Assembly (NCBI GenBank): GCA_017439665.1
Contig: JAFSIS010000030.1
Coordinates: 19,801 to 83,800, forward strand
DNA length: 64,000 nt
DNA from: Lachnospiraceae bacterium
GTDB lineage: Bacteria; Bacillota; Clostridia; Lachnospirales; Lachnospiraceae
Direction of reading: 5' to 3'
Under the pieces are notes generated by a model. It made no database searches, was not told the DNA's origin, and was given only the letters and a program-made list of their open reading frames with translations. How positions within the stretch are numbered: the stretch's first letter is position 1; every line of letters starts with the position of its first letter. The translations under genes and the position numbers were made by a program. This document shows positions 13,049 through 63,183 of this stretch, piece after piece.

Positions 13049-13053
13049 TAAAT

Positions 13054-13388
13054 AAGCGGGACGATAAGCCGGGTTCTGTCGTGAGTGATCATCTATCTAG
13101 GACTGCCGTTACCGGCAGCCTCCAGCAACCTACCTGAAAGCAGGTCGGGCAAACCTGTCGCTTTCTGCTTGGTCTTGCTTCGGATGGGGTTTACATGTGC
13201 CCCTTTTGTTACCAAAAGGGCGGTAGTCTCTTACACTGCCTTTCCACCCTTACCAGCTTTTGGCTGGCGGTTTATTTCTGTTGCACTGGCCTTGGAGTCG
13301 CCTCCACCGGACGTTATCCGGCATCCTGCCCTGTGAAGCCCGGACTTTCCTCGTCTGCCAAAGGCAGCCGCGATCACTTGTCCCACTT
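13054..13388 (-). ncRNA. rnpB: RNase P RNA (bacterial class A-like)
   Basis: The catalytic RNA that matures tRNA 5' ends. Visible conserved parts on the minus strand are GAGGAAAGTCCGGGCTTCAC with AGGGCAGG (P4/CR-I region), GGTGGAAAGGC-type central elements, AAACCCCATCCGAAGCAAGA, and the 3' ACAGAACCCGGCTTATCG. The ends were set by the P1 stem: AAGTGGGAC at the 5' end pairs with GTCCCGCTT at the 3' end. Length about 335 nt. Confidence 0.93.
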
Positions 13389-13416
13389 ATTTTTATCATT
13401 TTTTTATCAAACAGCC

Positions 13417-40555: not shown

Positions 40556-40568
40556 CACTAAAGCTTAG

Positions 40569-40651
40569 TGCAGGAAAAGAGACTTGAACTCTCATGGTAT
40601 TGCTACCACACGGACCTGAACCGTGCGCGTCTGCCATTCCGCCATTCCTGC
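40569..40651 (-). tRNA. tRNA-Leu (anticodon CAG)
   Basis: 83 nt, class II with a long variable arm. Acceptor GCAGGAA/TTCCTGC, anticodon loop TTCAGGT giving CAG, T-loop GTTCAAGTC, discriminator A. CCA is not encoded. Confidence 0.95.
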
Positions 40652-42270: not shown

Positions 42271-42448
42271 TTTCAAGCCTTCCTTTCACCTTATTATAGC
42301 ACGCTTTATTCAAAAGGCAAAAAGTTTTCCCCTAAAATAATCTTAAAAATTTATGAAGTTCCTGACAAAAACACTTGACGAATGCATTTGCCAGTGGTAG
42401 AATACAACTTGTGCTGTGAAGCAAAACAATCGTTGTAAACAGTGACAT

Positions 42449-42532
42449 GCGGAAGTGCTGGAATTGGCAGACAGGCAAGACTAAGGATCTTGTGATTGTA
42501 TGATCGTGTGGGTTCAAGTCCCATCTTCCGCA
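42449..42532 (+). tRNA. tRNA-Leu (anticodon AAG), prophage attachment target
   Basis: 84 nt, class II. Acceptor GCGGAAG/CTTCCGC, anticodon loop CTAAGGA giving AAG, GGTTCAAGTCC T-arm, discriminator A, no encoded CCA. Prophage genes begin right after its terminator, so its 3' end is the probable attachment site. Confidence 0.92.
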
Positions 42533-42538
42533 GTAGAT

Positions 42539-53703: not shown

Positions 53704-54195
53704 TTATGTGGTGGCAGTCTTCGTATAAGTAGGTTTGCCACCTGCTACTTTAACTGTTCCCCGCTCAATACTGTTGATATTGAGCTTGAAATAGATCTTT
53801 TCTGCCACAGAATCAAAATGATCCAGGGTGATGGTGCTGACCGTATTCCATGCATTAAACATAGGGTCATTTTCTGTCCCTACATTCCCTGCAAATACAA
53901 ACAGCGCAGGAAGTTTTACATCTTCACCGGTGGGAAGCAGATAAAACATTCCATAAATAAAATCGAATGCCGGATCACCTTTGTTTGCCTGAAGCTCCTG
54001 GGAAATCTCGGGTTTATAGTAGGTAATATCCGTAGACGGCATCTCATCTTCGATGAAGTTGTTTTCTTCGGTCTGCGCATTCAATACAAGATCATAGACC
54101 GTTGATTTTCCGATCCTTGCCCATTCCGGAGTATCATCTGCACTGATATCCAAAAACAGCATCGTTTTATGTTTCTTTAATCTCTCTAAAGCCCT
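53704..54195 (-). CDS. Major tail (tube) protein; start codon appears to be AGG
   Basis: 163 residues if started at AGG 54193-54195: (M)ALERLKKHKTMLFLDIS, then WARIGKSTVYDLVLNAQ and FVFAGNVGTENDPMFNAWN, typical of this tail-tube family. The stop of the upstream gene (TAA) overlaps the AGG by one base (TAAGG), the equivalent of the common TAATG overlap. GAGGGG is 7 bases upstream. A TTG 8 codons earlier has no ribosome site. See alternative-start finding. Confidence 0.82.
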   Translation of the reverse strand, partial: RALERLKKHKTMLFLDISADDTPEWARIGKSTVYDLVLNAQTEENNFIEDEMPSTDITYYKPEISQELQANKGDPAFDFIYGMFYLLPTGEDVKLPALFVFAGNVGTENDPMFNAWNTVSTITLDHFDSVAEKIYFKLNINSIERGTVKVAGGKPTYTKTATT

Positions 54196-54608
54196 TATGC
54201 TACCCCTCTTTCTCTCCAATAAGTTATAGTTAGCGACATCTGGTAGACGATATCATGTTCCCCTTCTTCTAATGGGGCAGGGATTCCGGTTATGGACAAC
54301 CCTGCAACCGTCCTGCCACCATCAATCTCCGGAAAATCATAATTTAAAGGAAAATCATCTATCCAGTAAGTTAATTCTTCCAGCCATTCATCCGCTTCCT
54401 TCCGTTCCCCTTCAGAAACTGCAGGCTGTCTGGCCATAAACTGATAAAACTCCGTAATCTCATAGCTGGAATCTGTATACCCTTTTATGTTTCTTGTGGG
54501 AGACTTGAAGAGTCCGTTTCTGTCCGAACCATCCGACATGTGATTGGTTTCGATTTCCAGATCTTCATAATTTTTCAACAGATCCACAATATACTGTGAT
54601 ATGGTCAT
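54195..54608 (-). CDS. Tail terminator (minor capsid 3-like)
   Basis: 137 residues; MTISQYIVDLLKNYEDLEIE and the late GEHDIVYQMSLTITYWRERG fit the tail-completion family. GGAGGGACTGCA before a normal ATG. Confidence 0.75.
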   Translation of the reverse strand: MTISQYIVDLLKNYEDLEIETNHMSDGSDRNGLFKSPTRNIKGYTDSSYEITEFYQFMARQPAVSEGERKEADEWLEELTYWIDDFPLNYDFPEIDGGRTVAGLSITGIPAPLEEGEHDIVYQMSLTITYWRERGVA

Positions 54609-55027
54609 TGCAGTCCCTCCGCTTTTGCTCTTTTCCTTGCTCCTGCTAAAATAGCTTCCTTATGCTGTTGCTTCATCCGCTCAAACCAGTAATTTCCACG
54701 TCCCACAGTGCCCATTCCGCTGCCGGAACCTTCACTGAAATTGGCCGGCATATAGTACCAGCGTCTGGCATAGGGTGTTCGGTATTTGATTTCGCCGGAT
54801 CCAATCTGGGTGTGCATAATTCCCGACTGCTTAAGGATTCCTGTGTCAAAAGGGATCAACTCCTCACATAGCCTTAAACACTGTGTATCAATGTAAGCCT
54901 GGGCTCCCTGGATTCGTTCTGTCATATCCGGTCCAAAACCAGGATTCCAGCGAATCTCCATTTCAACCTCGCCATCAGCCGTCTTTATCTTTACCAGTTC
55001 ACCTTTTGGTGTCTGGAGAACAAACAT
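54605..55027 (-). CDS. Head-tail joining protein (minor capsid 2 / HK97 gp10-like)
   Basis: 140 residues; DTGILKQSG and YARRWYYMPANFSEG are family features. AAGGGC upstream of the ATG. Four-base overlap with the next gene. Confidence 0.75.
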   Translation of the reverse strand: MFVLQTPKGELVKIKTADGEVEMEIRWNPGFGPDMTERIQGAQAYIDTQCLRLCEELIPFDTGILKQSGIMHTQIGSGEIKYRTPYARRWYYMPANFSEGSGSGMGTVGRGNYWFERMKQQHKEAILAGARKRAKAEGLQ

Positions 55028-55035
55028 ATCTGCCC

Positions 55036-55395
55036 TTAAGCGATCACCACCTTGATATTTTTCAAATGTCTGCGGTTGGAATTATCGTTTATCGACTGGA
55101 TCCTGCCTGACTTTGGGTATTTTTTCAGCAGATCAGAAATCCTGCTGCCTTTTTCGCCGGTCACCACATCCCCCACAGATCCGTAGATGATACAGTCCTC
55201 TTCCCGGTCAGCCTGTAAGGTCAGCCCTTCATAGCTTCCGGCCGGGAAGGTGATCTGTACATATCTGACTACGCTGATCTTTCCATTGAGGTTCTGCTTT
55301 TCCGTCTTATCTGACCACTGAACCCCTTTGATAATGGTGGGCTGCCATTCGGTATCTGATATTTTGTTGTAGAGGGTTATGGTGTCATTAAACAT
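55036..55395 (-). CDS. Head closure protein (minor capsid 1-like)
   Basis: 119 residues; MFNDTITLYNKISDTEW, TGEKGSRISDLLKKYP and a basic C-terminus fit the head-closure family found here in related phages. Confidence 0.7.
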   Translation of the reverse strand: MFNDTITLYNKISDTEWQPTIIKGVQWSDKTEKQNLNGKISVVRYVQITFPAGSYEGLTLQADREEDCIIYGSVGDVVTGEKGSRISDLLKKYPKSGRIQSINDNSNRRHLKNIKVVIA

Positions 55396-57563: not shown

Positions 57564-57634
57564 TTGCGGACGGAGGAATTGAGCCTCCACCTTCGGCTAA
57601 GGAGACCGATATGCTGCCGTTACACCAATCCGCC
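57564..57634 (-). tRNA. Phage tRNA with anticodon CCT and initiator-like features
   Basis: 71 nt. Acceptor GGCGGAT/GTCCGCA leaves base 1 (G) opposite A72 unpaired; D-loop AACGGCA with GG; anticodon stem TCGGT/GCCGA, loop CTCCTTA giving CCT; T-arm GGAGG-CTCAATT-CCTCC; A73; no encoded CCA. Initiator-like marks: 1-72 mismatch with A72-A73, the GG/CC pairs at 29-30:40-41, loop CTCCTTA versus CTCATAA of tRNA-fMet (A35 to C, A37 to T), and CCGAAGGT after the loop. Elongator-like: T11-A24. Reads AGG. Confidence 0.8.
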
Positions 57635-57685: not shown

Positions 57686-57741
57686 CAAAAAGAGCCGGGA
57701 GTTAATTCACACTGGACTTAACTGCTCGGCTCTTAGGCTCT
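57686..57741 (-). terminator. Module-boundary terminator 2 (before tRNA and capsid genes)
   Basis: Minus strand: AGAGCCTAAGAGCCGAG, then stem AGAGCCG...AGTTAA/TTAACT...CGGCTCT and T5. It overlaps the end of the KTR gene. Shares the 17-nt motif AGAGCCWRAGAGCCGRG with the terminators at 44866 and 63206. Confidence 0.75.
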
Positions 57742-57866
57742 ATCGTTATCACTGATTTACTTTTACATTTTTTACAATATCCGGGAAAATTGACCAGCTT
57801 GGTGTCCTCCCGGATCATAAACATTTTGCCCTTGCAATGTGGGCATGGATACCAAAAATACTTCAT
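57702..57866 (-). CDS. Cysteine-rich KTR-domain protein
   Basis: 54 residues, ATG 57864-57866. MKYFWYPCPHCKGKMF, NFPGYCKKCKSKSVITIEPKS: four Cys in two CxxC, the pattern of small KTR-domain proteins common on mobile elements. GAGGG site. Function unknown; its 3' end forms a terminator. Confidence 0.75.
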   Translation of the reverse strand: MKYFWYPCPHCKGKMFMIREDTKLVNFPGYCKKCKSKSVITIEPKSRAVKSSVN

Positions 57867-58127: not shown

Positions 58128-59969
58128 TCACTGAACCTCGTTAAAATATTCTCTGATAATCATTCTAGCTATTACTTCTTCTTTCGCACTGGCTAATGAG
58201 CCTATGTTCTCTTTTATTTTATTGTAATCTGGTAGTTTTTTCAACTCATTATCCACTATTTCTGCATCCATATCAAAAACCAGATCATATATATTATGTG
58301 CACCCGGAACCTTCTTTTTATTTGCCATATAATACACGCTTCCATCATTGCAGGACATAATCGATGCATATATACGCTGGTCAAAAAGTGCTGTATTAAC
58401 ATCGATATAAGAGGCTCCTTTATTATTTGTATGGTTATGCAGGAGGATAACACTATTTTCCCCACAGTTTAACAGCTTTTTAAAAAACTCCTGGCTCATA
58501 CACTCTCCTACCAAACCTTCTTCATAGGCAAGTGTTTTGCCAGAAACTCTGTCCAAAGCATACGCATACTCCTTTCCTGTTTCTGCACCATTTTTGACTA
58601 TTTCCTTGCTTATATGCTGCAGCTTCTTACAAACATCTGAATCTATGCCTGCTATCTTCATAGCGAATGAAGCATTTTCGTTAAATGGATAGTTTGCATT
58701 ATTGATTGAACCAGCCTTACTCTTTTGTTTTACTATAGCTGTTTTATAGGACTTTGTTTTCCTCAGATCACTGGTTCCACCGGACACTCTCAACCGATTA
58801 TCCTTTGCCCGGATGCCGACAGAATCACTGAAACTATGATAATCTGATACCTGCTTACGGAGCTTACGGTTTAGCTCCTTGACATCTCCGCCTATGGCTT
58901 TCTGTGCTTCAATCTCCCGTTTTGTCGCCCGAATATTCCTCTCCATAGCTCTCTGCTTCTGGGTATTCTGATAATAGCTCTCATCATAAGGGATATCCTC
59001 TGGAATAGGATCATCCTCCCAGTAGGGATAGAAGTTGTGACTGCAGTTTGGTCCCTGGATTCCGTCTCCCATACCATACCCTGCTCCACCACTTCCTAAA
59101 GGCGCCTTAAAGGATGGGTATTTTTTATTTTTTCCACTGTAGGAAAATACTTTGTTCTGAATAGGTGCGTGTTCCGGTCTGCTTCCCATATGCTGTGAGG
59201 TAATCACCAGATCCTGTCCTGTACTTTTCAGGTTCATCTCCGTCACTCTTCCGGATAACTGTGCCATACCGGTCCTTACTGCCATCCTGGCTGCGGAATC
59301 CAGCTGATAGCTTCTGCCACTGGCATAATCAACGGTGCGTAGTCCGCTTTTGGCCATGCGCTTTACACAGTCATTCACTACCTGATCGTAGGAAAAAGTG
59401 CCGCTGGCAACCTTTAATAGTGCCAGATCAAGCTCACGCTGATACATATTGAGAACACCAGTCGTTCCCAGGACAGTATTTTTAAATCCCATAGACCGGG
59501 TAAGGTTTTTTAACTCTTTAGCTGTCTGGATCCGGAAAGCTGACAGCAGCTGACTCATGCTGTTTGGCTTCTTCAAGCTGACCCCATGCTCCGACCACAT
59601 GGACAGATCATTGTTCCAGGCCATGTTTCCGGCCTGTGCGATCAGCTCTTTATTGCCCTCATTGATCTCTTCCAGGGTTTTATTGATAATCTCCTGTACC
59701 TGTTGCTTATAAGCCTTGGTATTCTCTGCTACAGCCATCTGATAGGCTTTATCTGCCCGGAGAAGCTTCATGACCTCAGCCTGTATCTTTGCTGCAGAAT
59801 ATCCCTGCTCTGTCATAGCCTTTGCCATCAGCTCTGCCGTCTCTGTGTACCGGCCAGTCTTTTGCACTCGTCTGGCTATATCTGCAATGATTTCCCTTTC
59901 CATCTCCTGATACAGGCCGATGATATATTTATCTGCTAAAACTTCAATCTGTTCTGGTGTTAATGCCCT
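58128..59969 (-). CDS. MuF-type minor head protein with C-terminal JAB-like domain; start codon appears to be AGG
   Basis: 613 residues if started at AGG 59967-59969: (M)ALTPEQIEVLADKYI, the conserved MuF-family start, with TAA abutting the AGG in frame and AAGGCGGTGAT 4-14 bases upstream. The first ATG is 22 codons in. Head-protein domain to about 380 (PNCSHNFYPYWEDD zinc-like motif), then a separate C-terminal domain with LLHNHTNNKGASYIDVN, resembling the HxH...S-x2-D of JAB/MPN enzymes. That tail may be an effector. See alternative-start finding. Confidence 0.82.
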   Translation of the reverse strand, partial: RALTPEQIEVLADKYIIGLYQEMEREIIADIARRVQKTGRYTETAELMAKAMTEQGYSAAKIQAEVMKLLRADKAYQMAVAENTKAYKQQVQEIINKTLEEINEGNKELIAQAGNMAWNNDLSMWSEHGVSLKKPNSMSQLLSAFRIQTAKELKNLTRSMGFKNTVLGTTGVLNMYQRELDLALLKVASGTFSYDQVVNDCVKRMAKSGLRTVDYASGRSYQLDSAARMAVRTGMAQLSGRVTEMNLKSTGQDLVITSQHMGSRPEHAPIQNKVFSYSGKNKKYPSFKAPLGSGGAGYGMGDGIQGPNCSHNFYPYWEDDPIPEDIPYDESYYQNTQKQRAMERNIRATKREIEAQKAIGGDVKELNRKLRKQVSDYHSFSDSVGIRAKDNRLRVSGGTSDLRKTKSYKTAIVKQKSKAGSINNANYPFNENASFAMKIAGIDSDVCKKLQHISKEIVKNGAETGKEYAYALDRVSGKTLAYEEGLVGECMSQEFFKKLLNCGENSVILLHNHTNNKGASYIDVNTALFDQRIYASIMSCNDGSVYYMANKKKVPGAHNIYDLVFDMDAEIVDNELKKLPDYNKIKENIGSLASAKEEVIARMIIREYFNEVQ

Positions 59970-59981
59970 TTAATCACCGCC

Positions 59982-61385
59982 TTACTCTTCTTCCTCCGGT
60001 TTATCCGGCTCCATAGCCTCTTTCCCTTCGCTGATATACTTTTCTACTTCTTCATCAGAGAGATTGTATTTCTCTTTGATATACTCTCGTGTCAGCCAGG
60101 GGATCTCCGGGAAGGATAGGGCATCTGCCCTCATCTGCTCCAGTTTCGCTGTCTTATCCTCGATGTAAGAATCGTCAAATTCAATGGACAGTCCTTCCTC
60201 GAGGTTATAACTGGTTCCATGGAACTGATTGGAAAACCACATGGCCGCCCGGACAATATCGGTAATATAGTCCTCTGCATTCTTTCTTTGTTTGTTCAGT
60301 TCCTGCATAGAATCCTGTTTTTCGCCAATATATTCCGTTGCTGTAGTGATCTTTCCATTCTCAAAGGTATACTTCTTAGTACCGTAGCCAAAGGACATGG
60401 ACAAAAGAGACAGCAGCAATTCAAACACCTTTGTAATATCCTCCACCCTGATTTCCGGGGTATACTCTTTAATCAATATATCCTGATCAGGCAGTTTTTC
60501 TCCCAACAGGATAAACAGATCTTTCTGTTGGGGAGTGAGCATATATGTACCATCTTCTCTTGTCTTTACTTCTGCCAATACCTCATTCAAAAATACCAGC
60601 TTTTCCCCTTTATCCAGATCTCCATAAAGGATATTGTAGCAAAGGTCTAAGGCCTTGAATACAGGAATGGAATTATAGATTTTAGGAAGGCCGTACCCCT
60701 CCATATCCTCCAGGTTATTCACCTCTGCATTGGTCATAATGGCAAAGGGCTTAATCTCTCCCAGCTGAATGCTGCCTTCCTCTTCTATTTTCCCCGAATG
60801 GTCAAAAATAACCGTGTCGGCCTTATAGAGATTATTTTCCAGTGTAAACGTTACCAGAGTAGTCTTAATCTTCCCCTTTACTCTTCCACTGGCGCAAAAG
60901 GCACATTCAGTCACCAGGTCATTTTCAATGGTCAAGGGAATAATGCTGTCTGCATCACAATAGTTGATCCTGATATCTCCTCCGGATACTTTTGCCTTAT
61001 CTTCTCCATACTCAATGAAATCAGCACTCTTGAGATATACATAAGCTCCTGCTGTTCCAGTGGCAGAAGTCTTTTCCAGCTGTTTACGATACTGAACCTC
61101 AAACCGGCTTTCTTCAAAGAGACTCTCAATAAACTCCTGTGCAGCGTTTTCCTTTTCCGGGACTACTGACACGATTTCACACAGGTTAGCATCATCCGCA
61201 CATCCTCTTTTTGCAAAGTTCATACGGCTTAAATGGATCTCCCTGCCGCTTAAGTTGTTTCTTTTATGAAAATCCGCTATTTCCTTGTTTTTATACCAGC
61301 TATCACAAACTTTAATGATGATTAGGGCCTCCTCATTGACAGAATAGCCCATCTTCTCCAAATGTCTTTTTACAAAATCTTTCCT
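59982..61385 (-). CDS. Portal protein; start codon appears to be AGG
   Basis: 467 residues if started at AGG 61383-61385: (M)KDFVKRHLEKMGYS. AGGAGG is 8 bases upstream and overlaps the large terminase stop. The only earlier usual starts are out of frame; TTG at 61361 has no ribosome site and would drop eight residues. Portal-type body with GDIRINYCDADSIIPL and a C-terminal acidic tail (EPDKPEEEE). See alternative-start finding. Confidence 0.8.
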   Translation of the reverse strand, partial: RKDFVKRHLEKMGYSVNEEALIIIKVCDSWYKNKEIADFHKRNNLSGREIHLSRMNFAKRGCADDANLCEIVSVVPEKENAAQEFIESLFEESRFEVQYRKQLEKTSATGTAGAYVYLKSADFIEYGEDKAKVSGGDIRINYCDADSIIPLTIENDLVTECAFCASGRVKGKIKTTLVTFTLENNLYKADTVIFDHSGKIEEEGSIQLGEIKPFAIMTNAEVNNLEDMEGYGLPKIYNSIPVFKALDLCYNILYGDLDKGEKLVFLNEVLAEVKTREDGTYMLTPQQKDLFILLGEKLPDQDILIKEYTPEIRVEDITKVFELLLSLLSMSFGYGTKKYTFENGKITTATEYIGEKQDSMQELNKQRKNAEDYITDIVRAAMWFSNQFHGTSYNLEEGLSIEFDDSYIEDKTAKLEQMRADALSFPEIPWLTREYIKEKYNLSDEEVEKYISEGKEAMEPDKPEEEE

Positions 61386-61397
61386 CTGATCATCCTC

Positions 61398-62729
61398 CTA
61401 TCTTCCCAAATCGATAAATTCCACAAAATCCAGCCATGTATAACAGAAAGCATCCCACCAGTCGTTGATATTGCCGATATTTTTATCTTCCGGAATATCC
61501 GGGTGTTTTTCATCCCACCGCAGAGATGCTATAGCTTTCCTGATATTGACACATCGTTTATTAATCTTAAGCCGCCCTGTATTTAAAAGCAGATCCACTG
61601 TCTTGGGTCTTTCTGATACTTCGTTCTTACGGCATCCTTTGATATTACGGCAGGGTAATCCTGCCGCTTTCGCTGCACTTCTAAGACTGTTGATCATGGT
61701 GGTGCTGGCAGAATCCGGGAACACCCAATCTACTCTCCCATATCTGCTTATTGCCATGCGATAGAATTCAATAAACTTATTACAAATAGCCTTTGCATCA
61801 ATATCAGCAGTTATCGGCAGGCCATCTTCCTCCAAAACCATGATCTTTTTATATCCTTCCCGATATCCGGTCAGGGCGAAAGTAGTTTTAGACCCATTAC
61901 CGCCAAAGTCAATCCCCATGACCAGCTTAGTAAAGGCCATCGCTTTCCCTTTGCCCTTAATCTCTTCCCACAAGTCATCATCCTGAAAAAGATATGGACT
62001 GTCATCCTCTGCAAAAAAGCGGAAAATAAGACCCTCCGCAACTACCCATAAGCCACGGATAAAACGATCATGAAATACACCGCTGTATGTACTTTCATAC
62101 CAATGAAGAACCTCTTCTGAAAGGCTGGGATTATCCCGCATTTCAAAATGGATCCGGATAAGGTTCTTTTCGGTACGCTTATCAATCCATTCTATTTTGA
62201 AAAAATGGTCAGGCCCTTCCGGGTTGCAGTTAAACCAGAACTTAGAACCCTCCACAGAGCATCGGCCTGTTGCCTGATTGACAAAGGATTCCGGCATCAG
62301 AGCCACCTCATCCATAAACAATCCTGCCAGCGTGATACCCTGAATCAGATCCTGAGAGCTTTCATCTTTTCCACCAAAGAAATAAAAGCTGTTTTCCGCA
62401 TCCTTACTCCTTACAATCATATAATTTTCAGACCGTTTTTCCTCCACCCCATATCCCCGGGATTTCAGCATTGCTGTCAGCTGCCTTATTACGTTTCTCC
62501 TGAGGGACTGGATCGTCTTTCCGCACAGGGCAAAGGTCTGACCGTCAAAAGTATCCATAGCCCAAAAGGCAAAAGACAATGCTCCTATGGAGGTTTTCCC
62601 AGAACGGATTGAGCCGTCCATGATAATTCCCCGCTTATTCTTGTATGGACTGCCCGGCATCCACCAGGTAAGAACAACCTTTTGTTTTAATGTGAAGGGC
62701 TTAAATTTGAATAAAGCTTTACGTTTCAA
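61398..62729 (-). CDS. Terminase large subunit
   Basis: 443 residues. Walker A-like DGSIRSGKT, Walker B-like LAGLFMDEVALMPE, and nuclease motif MGIDFGGNGSKT. TTG 62727-62729 start with GAGGGGG upstream; overlaps TerS by 11 bases. Cuts and packages phage DNA. Confidence 0.92.
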   Translation of the reverse strand: MKRKALFKFKPFTLKQKVVLTWWMPGSPYKNKRGIIMDGSIRSGKTSIGALSFAFWAMDTFDGQTFALCGKTIQSLRRNVIRQLTAMLKSRGYGVEEKRSENYMIVRSKDAENSFYFFGGKDESSQDLIQGITLAGLFMDEVALMPESFVNQATGRCSVEGSKFWFNCNPEGPDHFFKIEWIDKRTEKNLIRIHFEMRDNPSLSEEVLHWYESTYSGVFHDRFIRGLWVVAEGLIFRFFAEDDSPYLFQDDDLWEEIKGKGKAMAFTKLVMGIDFGGNGSKTTFALTGYREGYKKIMVLEEDGLPITADIDAKAICNKFIEFYRMAISRYGRVDWVFPDSASTTMINSLRSAAKAAGLPCRNIKGCRKNEVSERPKTVDLLLNTGRLKINKRCVNIRKAIASLRWDEKHPDIPEDKNIGNINDWWDAFCYTWLDFVEFIDLGR

Positions 62730-63183
62730 TAAACTCTTCCCCCTCTTCGCTTATTGTCTCCGCAGAGGCTTTCAACGCTTCCATAAAGCCGTCCGATTCA
62801 TACTCTTCCTGATCTCCGTGGATCTGACTCTTAAGCTTCTCAATCTCTACTCTCTGCTTCTCTATCTCATTGTTTTTATACTTAAGCTCTTCTTCGGTTT
62901 TCAACACACCGCAGATCGCGGTATATGCTTTTACATTGCCAGTAAGCCCTGCTTTAATCATGGCCATGTTAAGGGCAGATTCCAGGGTACAGTCTACTCC
63001 CAGCTCTTTCAGCAGGGGCTCCCATTCCGGGCTGTCTATTTTGGCTGTTAATAAAGCGTTTAAAGTCTTTCGGAAATTTGCTTTTTTACGTCTTGCTTCA
63101 CCAGAGGCTTTCCCGCCTTTTGAACCATTTTTTCGAGCTTCATCCGAGCTTAAAGCGATTAAATTCTTATGTCTTTCGTTCCC
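62719..63183 (-). CDS. Terminase small subunit; start codon appears to be GGG
   Basis: 154 residues if started at GGG 63181-63183: (M)NERHKNLIALSSDEARKNG, a helix-turn-helix with GSKGGKASGEARRKK typical of TerS. TAG abuts the GGG in frame. GAGGTGA lies 6 bases upstream. No ATG, GTG or TTG occurs in frame for 72 codons. Recognises the packaging site. See alternative-start finding. Confidence 0.78.
   Translation of the reverse strand, partial: GNERHKNLIALSSDEARKNGSKGGKASGEARRKKANFRKTLNALLTAKIDSPEWEPLLKELGVDCTLESALNMAMIKAGLTGNVKAYTAICGVLKTEEELKYKNNEIEKQRVEIEKLKSQIHGDQEEYESDGFMEALKASAETISEEGEEFIET

What the first reader, a model, noticed from the sequence alone, without database searches (positions are those of the whole stretch)
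57564..57634. Initiator-like phage tRNA with anticodon CCT, matching the AGG starts
A tRNA gene lies amid the genes with AGG starts. Its anticodon CCU is the exact complement of AGG and, by first-position wobble as with GUG and CAU, could read GGG. Unlike an ordinary Arg tRNA it shares the tRNA-fMet anticodon arm apart from four bases (loop CTCCTTA against CTCATAA), keeps G29G30:C40C41 and has an unpaired 1-72 with A72-A73. A35 to C mirrors T to G in the codon.
Basis: partly seen in the sequence, partly recalled or inferred. Interest (0 to 1): 0.97.

Follow-up and report, generated by a model that had tools for sequence, protein, structure and literature searches.

The report
Phage initiator tRNAs, private start codons
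A gut-bacterial prophage carries a tRNA gene with anticodon CCU and has AGG where ATG is expected at the start of several virion genes; in a family of filamentous phages a similar tRNA changes its anticodon in step with the start codon of the coat gene, so these viruses likely use their own initiator tRNAs to read private start codons.

Summary
The tRNA (57634-57564, minus) has anticodon CCU, a G1xA72 mismatch, A73, G2:C71 and C3:G70. It scores 64.3 bits with a model of phage tRNA-Met(CAU) and 34.3 bits with a model of 19 host elongators. In the window AGG stands at the start of the portal, minor capsid, major capsid, tape-measure and (probably) major tail genes, GGG at the small terminase-like gene. 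AGG behind a Shine-Dalgarno with no canonical start occurs in 40 of 349 ORFs of CCU-tRNA loci, 0 of 90 of CAU-tRNA loci and 7 of 1247 of loci where neither was found. The link holds in tailed phages unrelated to the window's (L052, L056, L069). Decisive evidence came from inoviruses: in 23 of 23 with such a tRNA the coat start codon is the exact complement of the anticodon (ACG, ACA, ACU, CAG, CAA), and in 23 of 23 the base before it is complementary to tRNA base 37. One tRNA-less relative uses ATG. Initiation at a four-base private start is strongly inferred; charging, formylation and expression are untested.

The parts
57564..57634 (-). phage initiator-like tRNA, anticodon CCU (C34C35U36), U37, G1xA72, A73; no encoded CCA
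62719..63183 (-). small terminase-like gene (phrog_2412, named from its place before TerL); GGG directly after TAG
   Evidence: a GGG start rests on this one gene
59982..61385 (-). portal gene (phrog_533), AGG start at 61385-61383 after AGGAGG
   Evidence: AGG at the aligned place in L010, L019, L039, L040, L043, L050, L058, L066; ATG in L014 (which has the CCU tRNA) and in L048 (CAU tRNA)
58128..59969 (-). minor capsid gene (PF06152), AGG start directly after TAA
   Evidence: AGG also in L010, L019, L043, L050, L058, L065; ATG in L014, L039, L040 and L048
56051..56920 (-). major capsid gene (phrog_422), AGG start at 56920-56918 after AGGAGG, directly after TAA
   Evidence: AGG also in L018/L019, L039, L058; ATG in seven other CCU phages
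53704..54195 (-). major tail gene (weak phrog_820), probable AGG start at 54195-54193
   Evidence: AGG also in L010, L018, L043, L058; GTG in L014
49924..52758 (-). tape-measure gene, AGG start directly after TGA
   Evidence: AGG also in L010, L014, L018, L043, L045, L058, L065; no Pfam match, named from size, place and N-terminus
54605..55036 (-). minor head gene (phrog_556), possible AGG start at 55036-55034; an ATG lies three codons further
   Evidence: AGG at this place in L043 and L058
56933..57514 (-). scaffold gene (PF06810) next to the tRNA, ordinary ATG start

Best explanation
The phage carries a tRNA gene with anticodon CCU and AGG at the first position of several virion genes, and the tRNA is predicted to act as a virus-encoded initiator tRNA that starts translation of those genes at AGG. 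Shown by sequence: the initiator-type acceptor end (no 1:72 pair, G2:C71, C3:G70), the AGG codons behind Shine-Dalgarno sequences, and the co-occurrence of tRNA and AGG starts in related and unrelated phages. Shown by covariation in inoviruses with tRNAs of this kind: anticodon and start codon change together, and tRNA base 37 matches the base before the start codon. Inferred: the host would charge and likely formylate the tRNA, IF2 would bring it to the P site, and bases 34-37 would pair with the four bases -1 to +3, so that these virion genes are translated only when the phage makes its tRNA. Unknown: which amino acid is loaded (Arg, Met or another), and why phages do this. The likeliest reasons are a private lock and key that keeps virion genes silent without the tRNA, or escape from host attack on tRNA-fMet.
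For: Initiator traits: 14 of 14 distinct CCU tRNAs of tailed phages have a 1x72 mismatch, of six kinds (GA, CA, AA, TC, GG, AG), all with G2:C71, C3:G70 and A73; L069 also encodes CCA, which fixes the ends. Family: 64.3 bits to phage tRNA-Met(CAU), 34.3 to host elongators. AGG sites: 40 of 349, 0 of 90 and 7 of 1247 ORFs in loci with a CCU tRNA, a CAU tRNA or neither. Unrelated phages: L069/L151 with six AGG starts, L052/L152 with six, L056 with one; none of 16 window proteins matches them. Anticodon swap: CAU tRNAs in L013, L048 and L107 go with ATG. Inoviruses: 23 of 23 codon matches and 23 of 23 matches of base 37 with base -1, ten distinct quadruplets, 0 of 100000 permutations; tRNA-less L207 has ATG. 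Twelve of the 23 were fetched by coat protein, not by tRNA. In U37 tailed phages base -1 of AGG is A in 32 of 33 sites, against 61 of 135 at ATG.
Against: No expression, charging, formylation or N-terminal data. The window tRNA lacks two E. coli initiator traits, the third G:C pair and A11:U24. In the two tailed phages with A37 (L010, L050/L045) only 1 of 5 AGG sites has the matching T at -1. L038 has the tRNA but no AGG start in its 10.9 kb. Seven CCU phages keep ATG at MCP, so use is partial. L048's CAU tRNA has a C1:G72 pair. Of the 23 inovirus tRNAs 15 have a 1x72 mismatch, 6 a weak U1:A72 pair, and 2 (L202, L204) have ends that I could not place. The inovirus starts were read by eye with the anticodon known; the guard is their fixed distance, within one base, from a conserved GAAAGG-like stretch, the same as in L207 with ATG. 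All counts ignore relatedness.
Confidence: 0.93

Rival explanations
1. The tRNA is an ordinary elongator tRNA-Arg(CCU) that helps read internal AGG codons, and the AGG starts are unrelated.
For: Anticodon CCU is an Arg anticodon and ARAGORN names it tRNA-Arg.
Against: 14 of 14 such tRNAs lack the 1:72 pair; poor fit to elongators; the host already has tRNA-Arg(CCU) with a G1:C72 pair; AGG starts follow the tRNA across unrelated phages; U37 is unusual for an elongator reading A-codons (recalled).
Confidence: 0.02
2. AGG (and ACN, CAN in inoviruses) are weak near-cognate starts read by the host tRNA-fMet to keep expression low; the phage tRNA has another job.
For: tRNA-fMet can start at some non-AUG codons in cell-free systems (PMC13232202, passages).
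Against: Capsid and coat proteins are needed in bulk (recalled); MCP starts are canonical in the relatives examined that lack such a tRNA; in inoviruses the start codon equals the complement of the anticodon in 23 of 23.
Confidence: 0.02
3. The tRNA works both ways, as initiator at AGG and as elongator at internal AGG codons, or acts mainly as a regulator of late genes.
For: A weak U1:A72 pair occurs in 6 of 23 inovirus members; the window tRNA gene lies inside the late gene block.
Against: In the CCU set the 1:72 mismatch is kept by six different base combinations, which suggests selection against elongation.
Confidence: 0.03

Closest known systems
Bacterial initiator tRNA-fMet, and phage tRNA-Met(CAU) genes of the same body
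   Same: 1x72 mismatch, G2:C71, C3:G70, A73 as in a bacterial tRNA-fMet (L067); body fits a model of 18 phage tRNA-Met(CAU) genes
   Different: anticodon CCU, CGU, UGU, AGU, CUG or UUG; three G:C pairs and A11:U24 not kept in the window tRNA; base 73 is C or U in 16 of 23 inovirus members
Engineered initiator tRNAs with changed anticodons and artificial start codons (PMC8576571 and PMC13232202, passages read)
   Same: principle: an initiator body with another anticodon starts translation at the matching codon (UAG; in cell-free systems also AAG, GUA, CAC and others)
   Different: man-made; no natural case and no matching of base 37 with base -1 in the passages read
Phage tRNAs that evade tRNA-targeting defences (PMC10264068; start of abstract and passages read)
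   Same: phage tRNAs with changed anticodon loops; tRNA-fMet named as a target of VapC
   Different: the passages read speak of escape from nucleases, not of changed start codons
Extended codon-anticodon interaction at initiation (Esposito 2003, EMBO J; seen only as an entry in a reference list; content recalled)
   Same: base 37 of the initiator pairs with the base before the start codon
   Different: there with AUG and tRNA-fMet; here base 37 and base -1 covary in 23 of 23 inoviruses

Membership tests
bacterial initiator tRNA | no Watson-Crick pair at 1:72 | tested here: met
   G1xA72 in the window; mismatch in 14 of 14 CCU tRNAs
bacterial initiator tRNA | G2:C71, C3:G70 and A73 (formylation determinants, recalled) | tested here: met
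   all 14 CCU tRNAs
[quoted passage not shown]
   window has G29:C41, G30:C40 and U31.G39
bacterial initiator tRNA | A11:U24 in the D stem | tested here: not met
   window has U11:A24; A11:U24 is present in L038, L039, L040 and L069
bacterial initiator tRNA | CAU anticodon reading AUG | tested here: not met
   CCU
bacterial initiator tRNA | formylated and bound at the P site by IF2 | not testable with these tools
   needs biochemistry
phage tRNA-Met(CAU) body | fits a covariance model of that family better than one of elongators | tested here: met
   64.3 against 34.3 bits
elongator tRNA-Arg(CCU) | CCU anticodon | tested here: met
elongator tRNA-Arg(CCU) | paired 1:72 as in the host tRNA-Arg(CCU) | tested here: not met
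elongator tRNA-Arg(CCU) | A20, an arginine identity base (recalled) | tested here: not met
   window D loop has C at 20; host tRNA-Arg(CCU) has A20 (read from the sequences)

The most novel reading that the evidence does not exclude
Viruses of bacteria own private start codons. Tailed phages and inoviruses encode initiator tRNAs whose bases 34-37 read a four-base start (base -1 plus the codon) of virion genes: mostly AAGG in tailed phages and ten different quadruplets on one inovirus coat gene family. Codon, anticodon and base 37 diversify together as a lock and key, so that the virion genes are readable only with the virus's own tRNA and are closed to the host, to competitors and to satellites.
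Probability: 0.8. Interest if true: 0.98.

Novelty: categorically new. Interest (0 to 1): 0.97.

Why it matters
Initiation at AUG and its close kin, read by tRNA-fMet, is taken as universal in bacteria; stop codons are known to be reassigned in phages, start codons to my knowledge are not (recalled; no report among the papers listed). Here nature has apparently done what synthetic biology attempts: an orthogonal initiation channel. It offers ready-made initiator tRNAs for at least six codons, makes the old question of pairing between base 37 and base -1 directly testable, and explains why annotators missed most of these inovirus coat genes (18 of 20 records).

Tried and rejected

Considered and rejected: AGG flagged near MCP in L116, L119, L120, L122 and L124 lies in or by the Shine-Dalgarno before an ATG. 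One search also flags AGG within three codons of the aligned minor-capsid start, with a canonical codon close by, in L070, L073, L078, L081, L082, L089, L106 and L108; these were not looked at one by one, and one search does not count an ORF that has a canonical codon at Shine-Dalgarno distance. Two AGG sites in the CCU set (window minor capsid codon 24, L039 10337 codon 23) look internal; the first ORF counts in the 40 of 349 anyway, the second counts only through this site; both were dropped from the -1 table of 39 sites. CGG, TGG and other GGG sites were not taken as starts. The AGG of L066 TerS has a GTG with a Shine-Dalgarno two codons before it and is left open. The fold of the tRNA alone is no better than shuffled (z -0.60); it says nothing for or against.

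Limits: the 87 comparison loci are pieces in which ARAGORN found no CCU tRNA and no initiator-like CAU tRNA; not all span the tRNA place, and four hold another tRNA (L031 Gln, L076 Ile, L104 elongator-like Met, L126 Asn). L028, L034 and L035 were left out of it. Duplicate ORFs were removed only if their first 120 bases were identical. L018 and L019, and L045, L050 and L062, look like pieces of one phage each. Of the 18 records I fetched the 9 new inoviruses and not the 7 tailed-phage records.

Full report
What is in the window. The window is the end of contig C87 of a 2.7-Mb draft genome. Its last 21 kb are the late genes of a tailed prophage on the minus strand: a TerS-like gene, TerL, portal, minor capsid, scaffold, major capsid, connectors, tail genes and tape measure (some names from place and size). 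Between the minor capsid and scaffold genes lies a tRNA with anticodon CCU at 57634-57564. It has G1xA72, G2:C71, C3:G70, A73, loop CTCCTTA with U37, U31.G39 and U11:A24.

AGG starts. MCP, minor capsid and tape measure have AGG as the first codon after an in-frame stop, and portal has AGG four codons in, each behind a Shine-Dalgarno. The major tail gene has a probable AGG start, a minor head gene a possible one; the TerS-like gene has GGG directly after TAG. Scaffold and several small genes have ATG. A canonical start of MCP would lie 27 codons in.

Relatives of the window phage. MCP relatives came from IMG/VR and from GTDB genomes, portal relatives, tRNA relatives from patterns. A CCU tRNA upstream of the scaffold or MCP gene occurs in L010, L014, L019, L038, L039, L040, L043, L050, L058 and L065. 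All but L038 have AGG at the aligned start of portal, minor capsid, MCP, major tail or tape measure, in differing subsets; L038 is a 10.9-kb fragment. Seven keep ATG at MCP. Relatives with an initiator-type CAU tRNA at the same place (L013, L048, L107) or elsewhere in the late region (L070, L081) show no AGG start. MCP starts are canonical in the relatives examined without such a tRNA.

Unbiased count. For all ORFs of 90 codons or more I asked for AGG at Shine-Dalgarno distance with no canonical codon so placed: 40 of 349 ORFs in 20 loci with the CCU tRNA (or parts of the same phage), 0 of 90 in 5 loci with a CAU tRNA, 7 of 1247 in 87 loci in which neither was found (Fisher 8.7e-21 for the first against the last, relatedness ignored). 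In the CCU set AGG is the commonest such codon (next AGA, 16); in the comparison set it is not among the eight listed.

Unrelated tailed phages. None of 16 window proteins matches L052, L152, L069, L151 or L056 (tblastn, E up to 1e-3), while in the control L010 fifteen of the sixteen queries match, all but the TerS-like one. Yet these phages carry CCU tRNAs of the same body. L052/L152 (contig name of an IMG genome) has AGG at TerS, portal, MCP, tail tube, tape measure and a further tail gene (gene names by my reading of N-termini, place and size, MCP also by relatives). L069/L151 has AGG at portal, MCP and four further genes (portal phrog_156; MCP by relatives). L056 has AGG at its tape measure. 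L069's tRNA encodes CCA, which fixes its ends and so the C1xA72 mismatch.

What kind of tRNA. 14 of 14 distinct CCU tRNAs lack a 1:72 pair, by six different base combinations, and all have G2:C71, C3:G70 and A73. A covariance model of 18 phage tRNA-Met(CAU) genes (18 of the 28 new loci, whose tRNAs all read CAU) gives the window tRNA 64.3 bits; a model of 19 host elongators gives 34.3. The host tRNA-Arg(CCU) gives 25.0 and 76.5, a bacterial tRNA-fMet (L067) 61.8 and 61.6. The host has its own tRNA-Arg(CCU). Identity elements of E. coli initiators are quoted from passages of PMC8576571.

The inoviruses. BLAST with the L069 tRNA found two inovirus records with a tRNA of anticodon CGU, and the coat-like gene there starts with ACG. 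BLAST with that tRNA gave nine more inovirus records; BLAST with the coat protein gave 13 more. Of the 24 records, 23 carry a tRNA of this kind. In 23 of 23 the start codon is the complement of the anticodon: ACG 9, ACA 3, ACU 4, CAG 6, CAA 1. In 23 of 23 base 37 is the Watson-Crick partner of base -1, with all four bases seen at 37. There are ten distinct quadruplets; 0 of 100000 permutations of base -1 match in all (relatedness ignored). The one record without a tRNA, L207, starts its coat with ATG. Start positions were read by eye with the anticodon known; they lie within one base of 16 bases after the start of a GAAAGG-like stretch, as does the ATG of L207. Base 72 is A in the 21 whose ends could be placed; base 1 is C or G in 15 and U in 6 (a weak pair); 2 (L202, L204) could not be placed at base 1. 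Annotators list no feature under the coat match in 18 of 20 records.

Four-base start. In tailed phages with U37 the base before AGG is A in 32 of 33 sites, against 61 of 135 before ATG in the CCU loci; the C37 phage L014 has G (1 of 1); the two A37 phages have the matching T in only 1 of 5. So the extended pairing is clear in inoviruses and in U37 phages, and not in the A37 ones. Extended pairing at initiation is known from work that I could not read (Esposito 2003; seen in a reference list; look-up failed).

Mechanism, shown and inferred. Shown: gene anatomy, co-occurrence, covariation. Inferred: charging, formylation, P-site use, dependence of virion proteins on the tRNA. Unknown: the loaded amino acid. 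The window tRNA has C20 where the host tRNA-Arg(CCU) has A20, so ArgRS may charge it poorly (identity role recalled). In the inovirus tRNAs base 73 is A in 7 of 7 with CUG or UUG and C or U in 16 of 16 with NGU, which hints at selection on charging. Phage-encoded synthetases, formylase or initiation factors were not searched for.

Literature. Searches for natural AGG starts, phage initiator tRNAs and inovirus start codons showed no report among the papers listed (20 of 232, 15 of 36, 20 of 37, 9 of 10, 1 of 1, none; open-licence papers only). Read as passages: PMC8576571, PMC13232202, PMC10264068, PMC8877259; all others only as search listings. Engineered initiator tRNAs do the same by design (PMC13232202 and PMC8576571).

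Verdict. The finding is real, and it is one instance of a wider system: viruses that carry an initiator-like tRNA and a matching private start codon.

Noticed in passing
L154, L155, L185-L193, L195-L206: Inovirus coat genes with ACG, ACA, ACT, CAG or CAA starts are mostly missed by annotators: no feature under the match in 18 of 20 records.
   Followed up: yes
tRNAs of L154, L155, L185-L193, L195-L206: Discriminator base 73 follows the anticodon: A in 7 of 7 tRNAs with CUG or UUG, C or U in 16 of 16 with NGU.
   Followed up: partly
L107 6352-6425; L070 2648-2722; L081 3759-3832; L048 9288-9360: Relatives of the window phage carry close kin of bacterial tRNA-fMet(CAU): one with U37 (L107), two with T1xT72 (L070, L081), one with C33 (L081), one with a C1:G72 pair (L048).
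   Followed up: partly
window 57705-57866: Small Cys_rich_KTR (PF14205) zinc-ribbon protein gene between the minor capsid gene and the tRNA.
   Followed up: no
window 42448-42533: tRNA-Leu(AAG) next to the lysis end of the prophage, a possible attachment site; a tRNA-Leu(CAG) lies at 40568-40651.
   Followed up: no
L154 4037-4234, L155 1013-1210, L196-L199: A paralogous coat-like gene next to the private-start gene begins with TTG or ATG.
   Followed up: no
L052 1104-1176: A further tRNA-like element (ARAGORN tRNA-Ala) directly upstream of the CCU tRNA.
   Followed up: no
window 13049-13389: RNase P RNA class A of the host.
   Followed up: no
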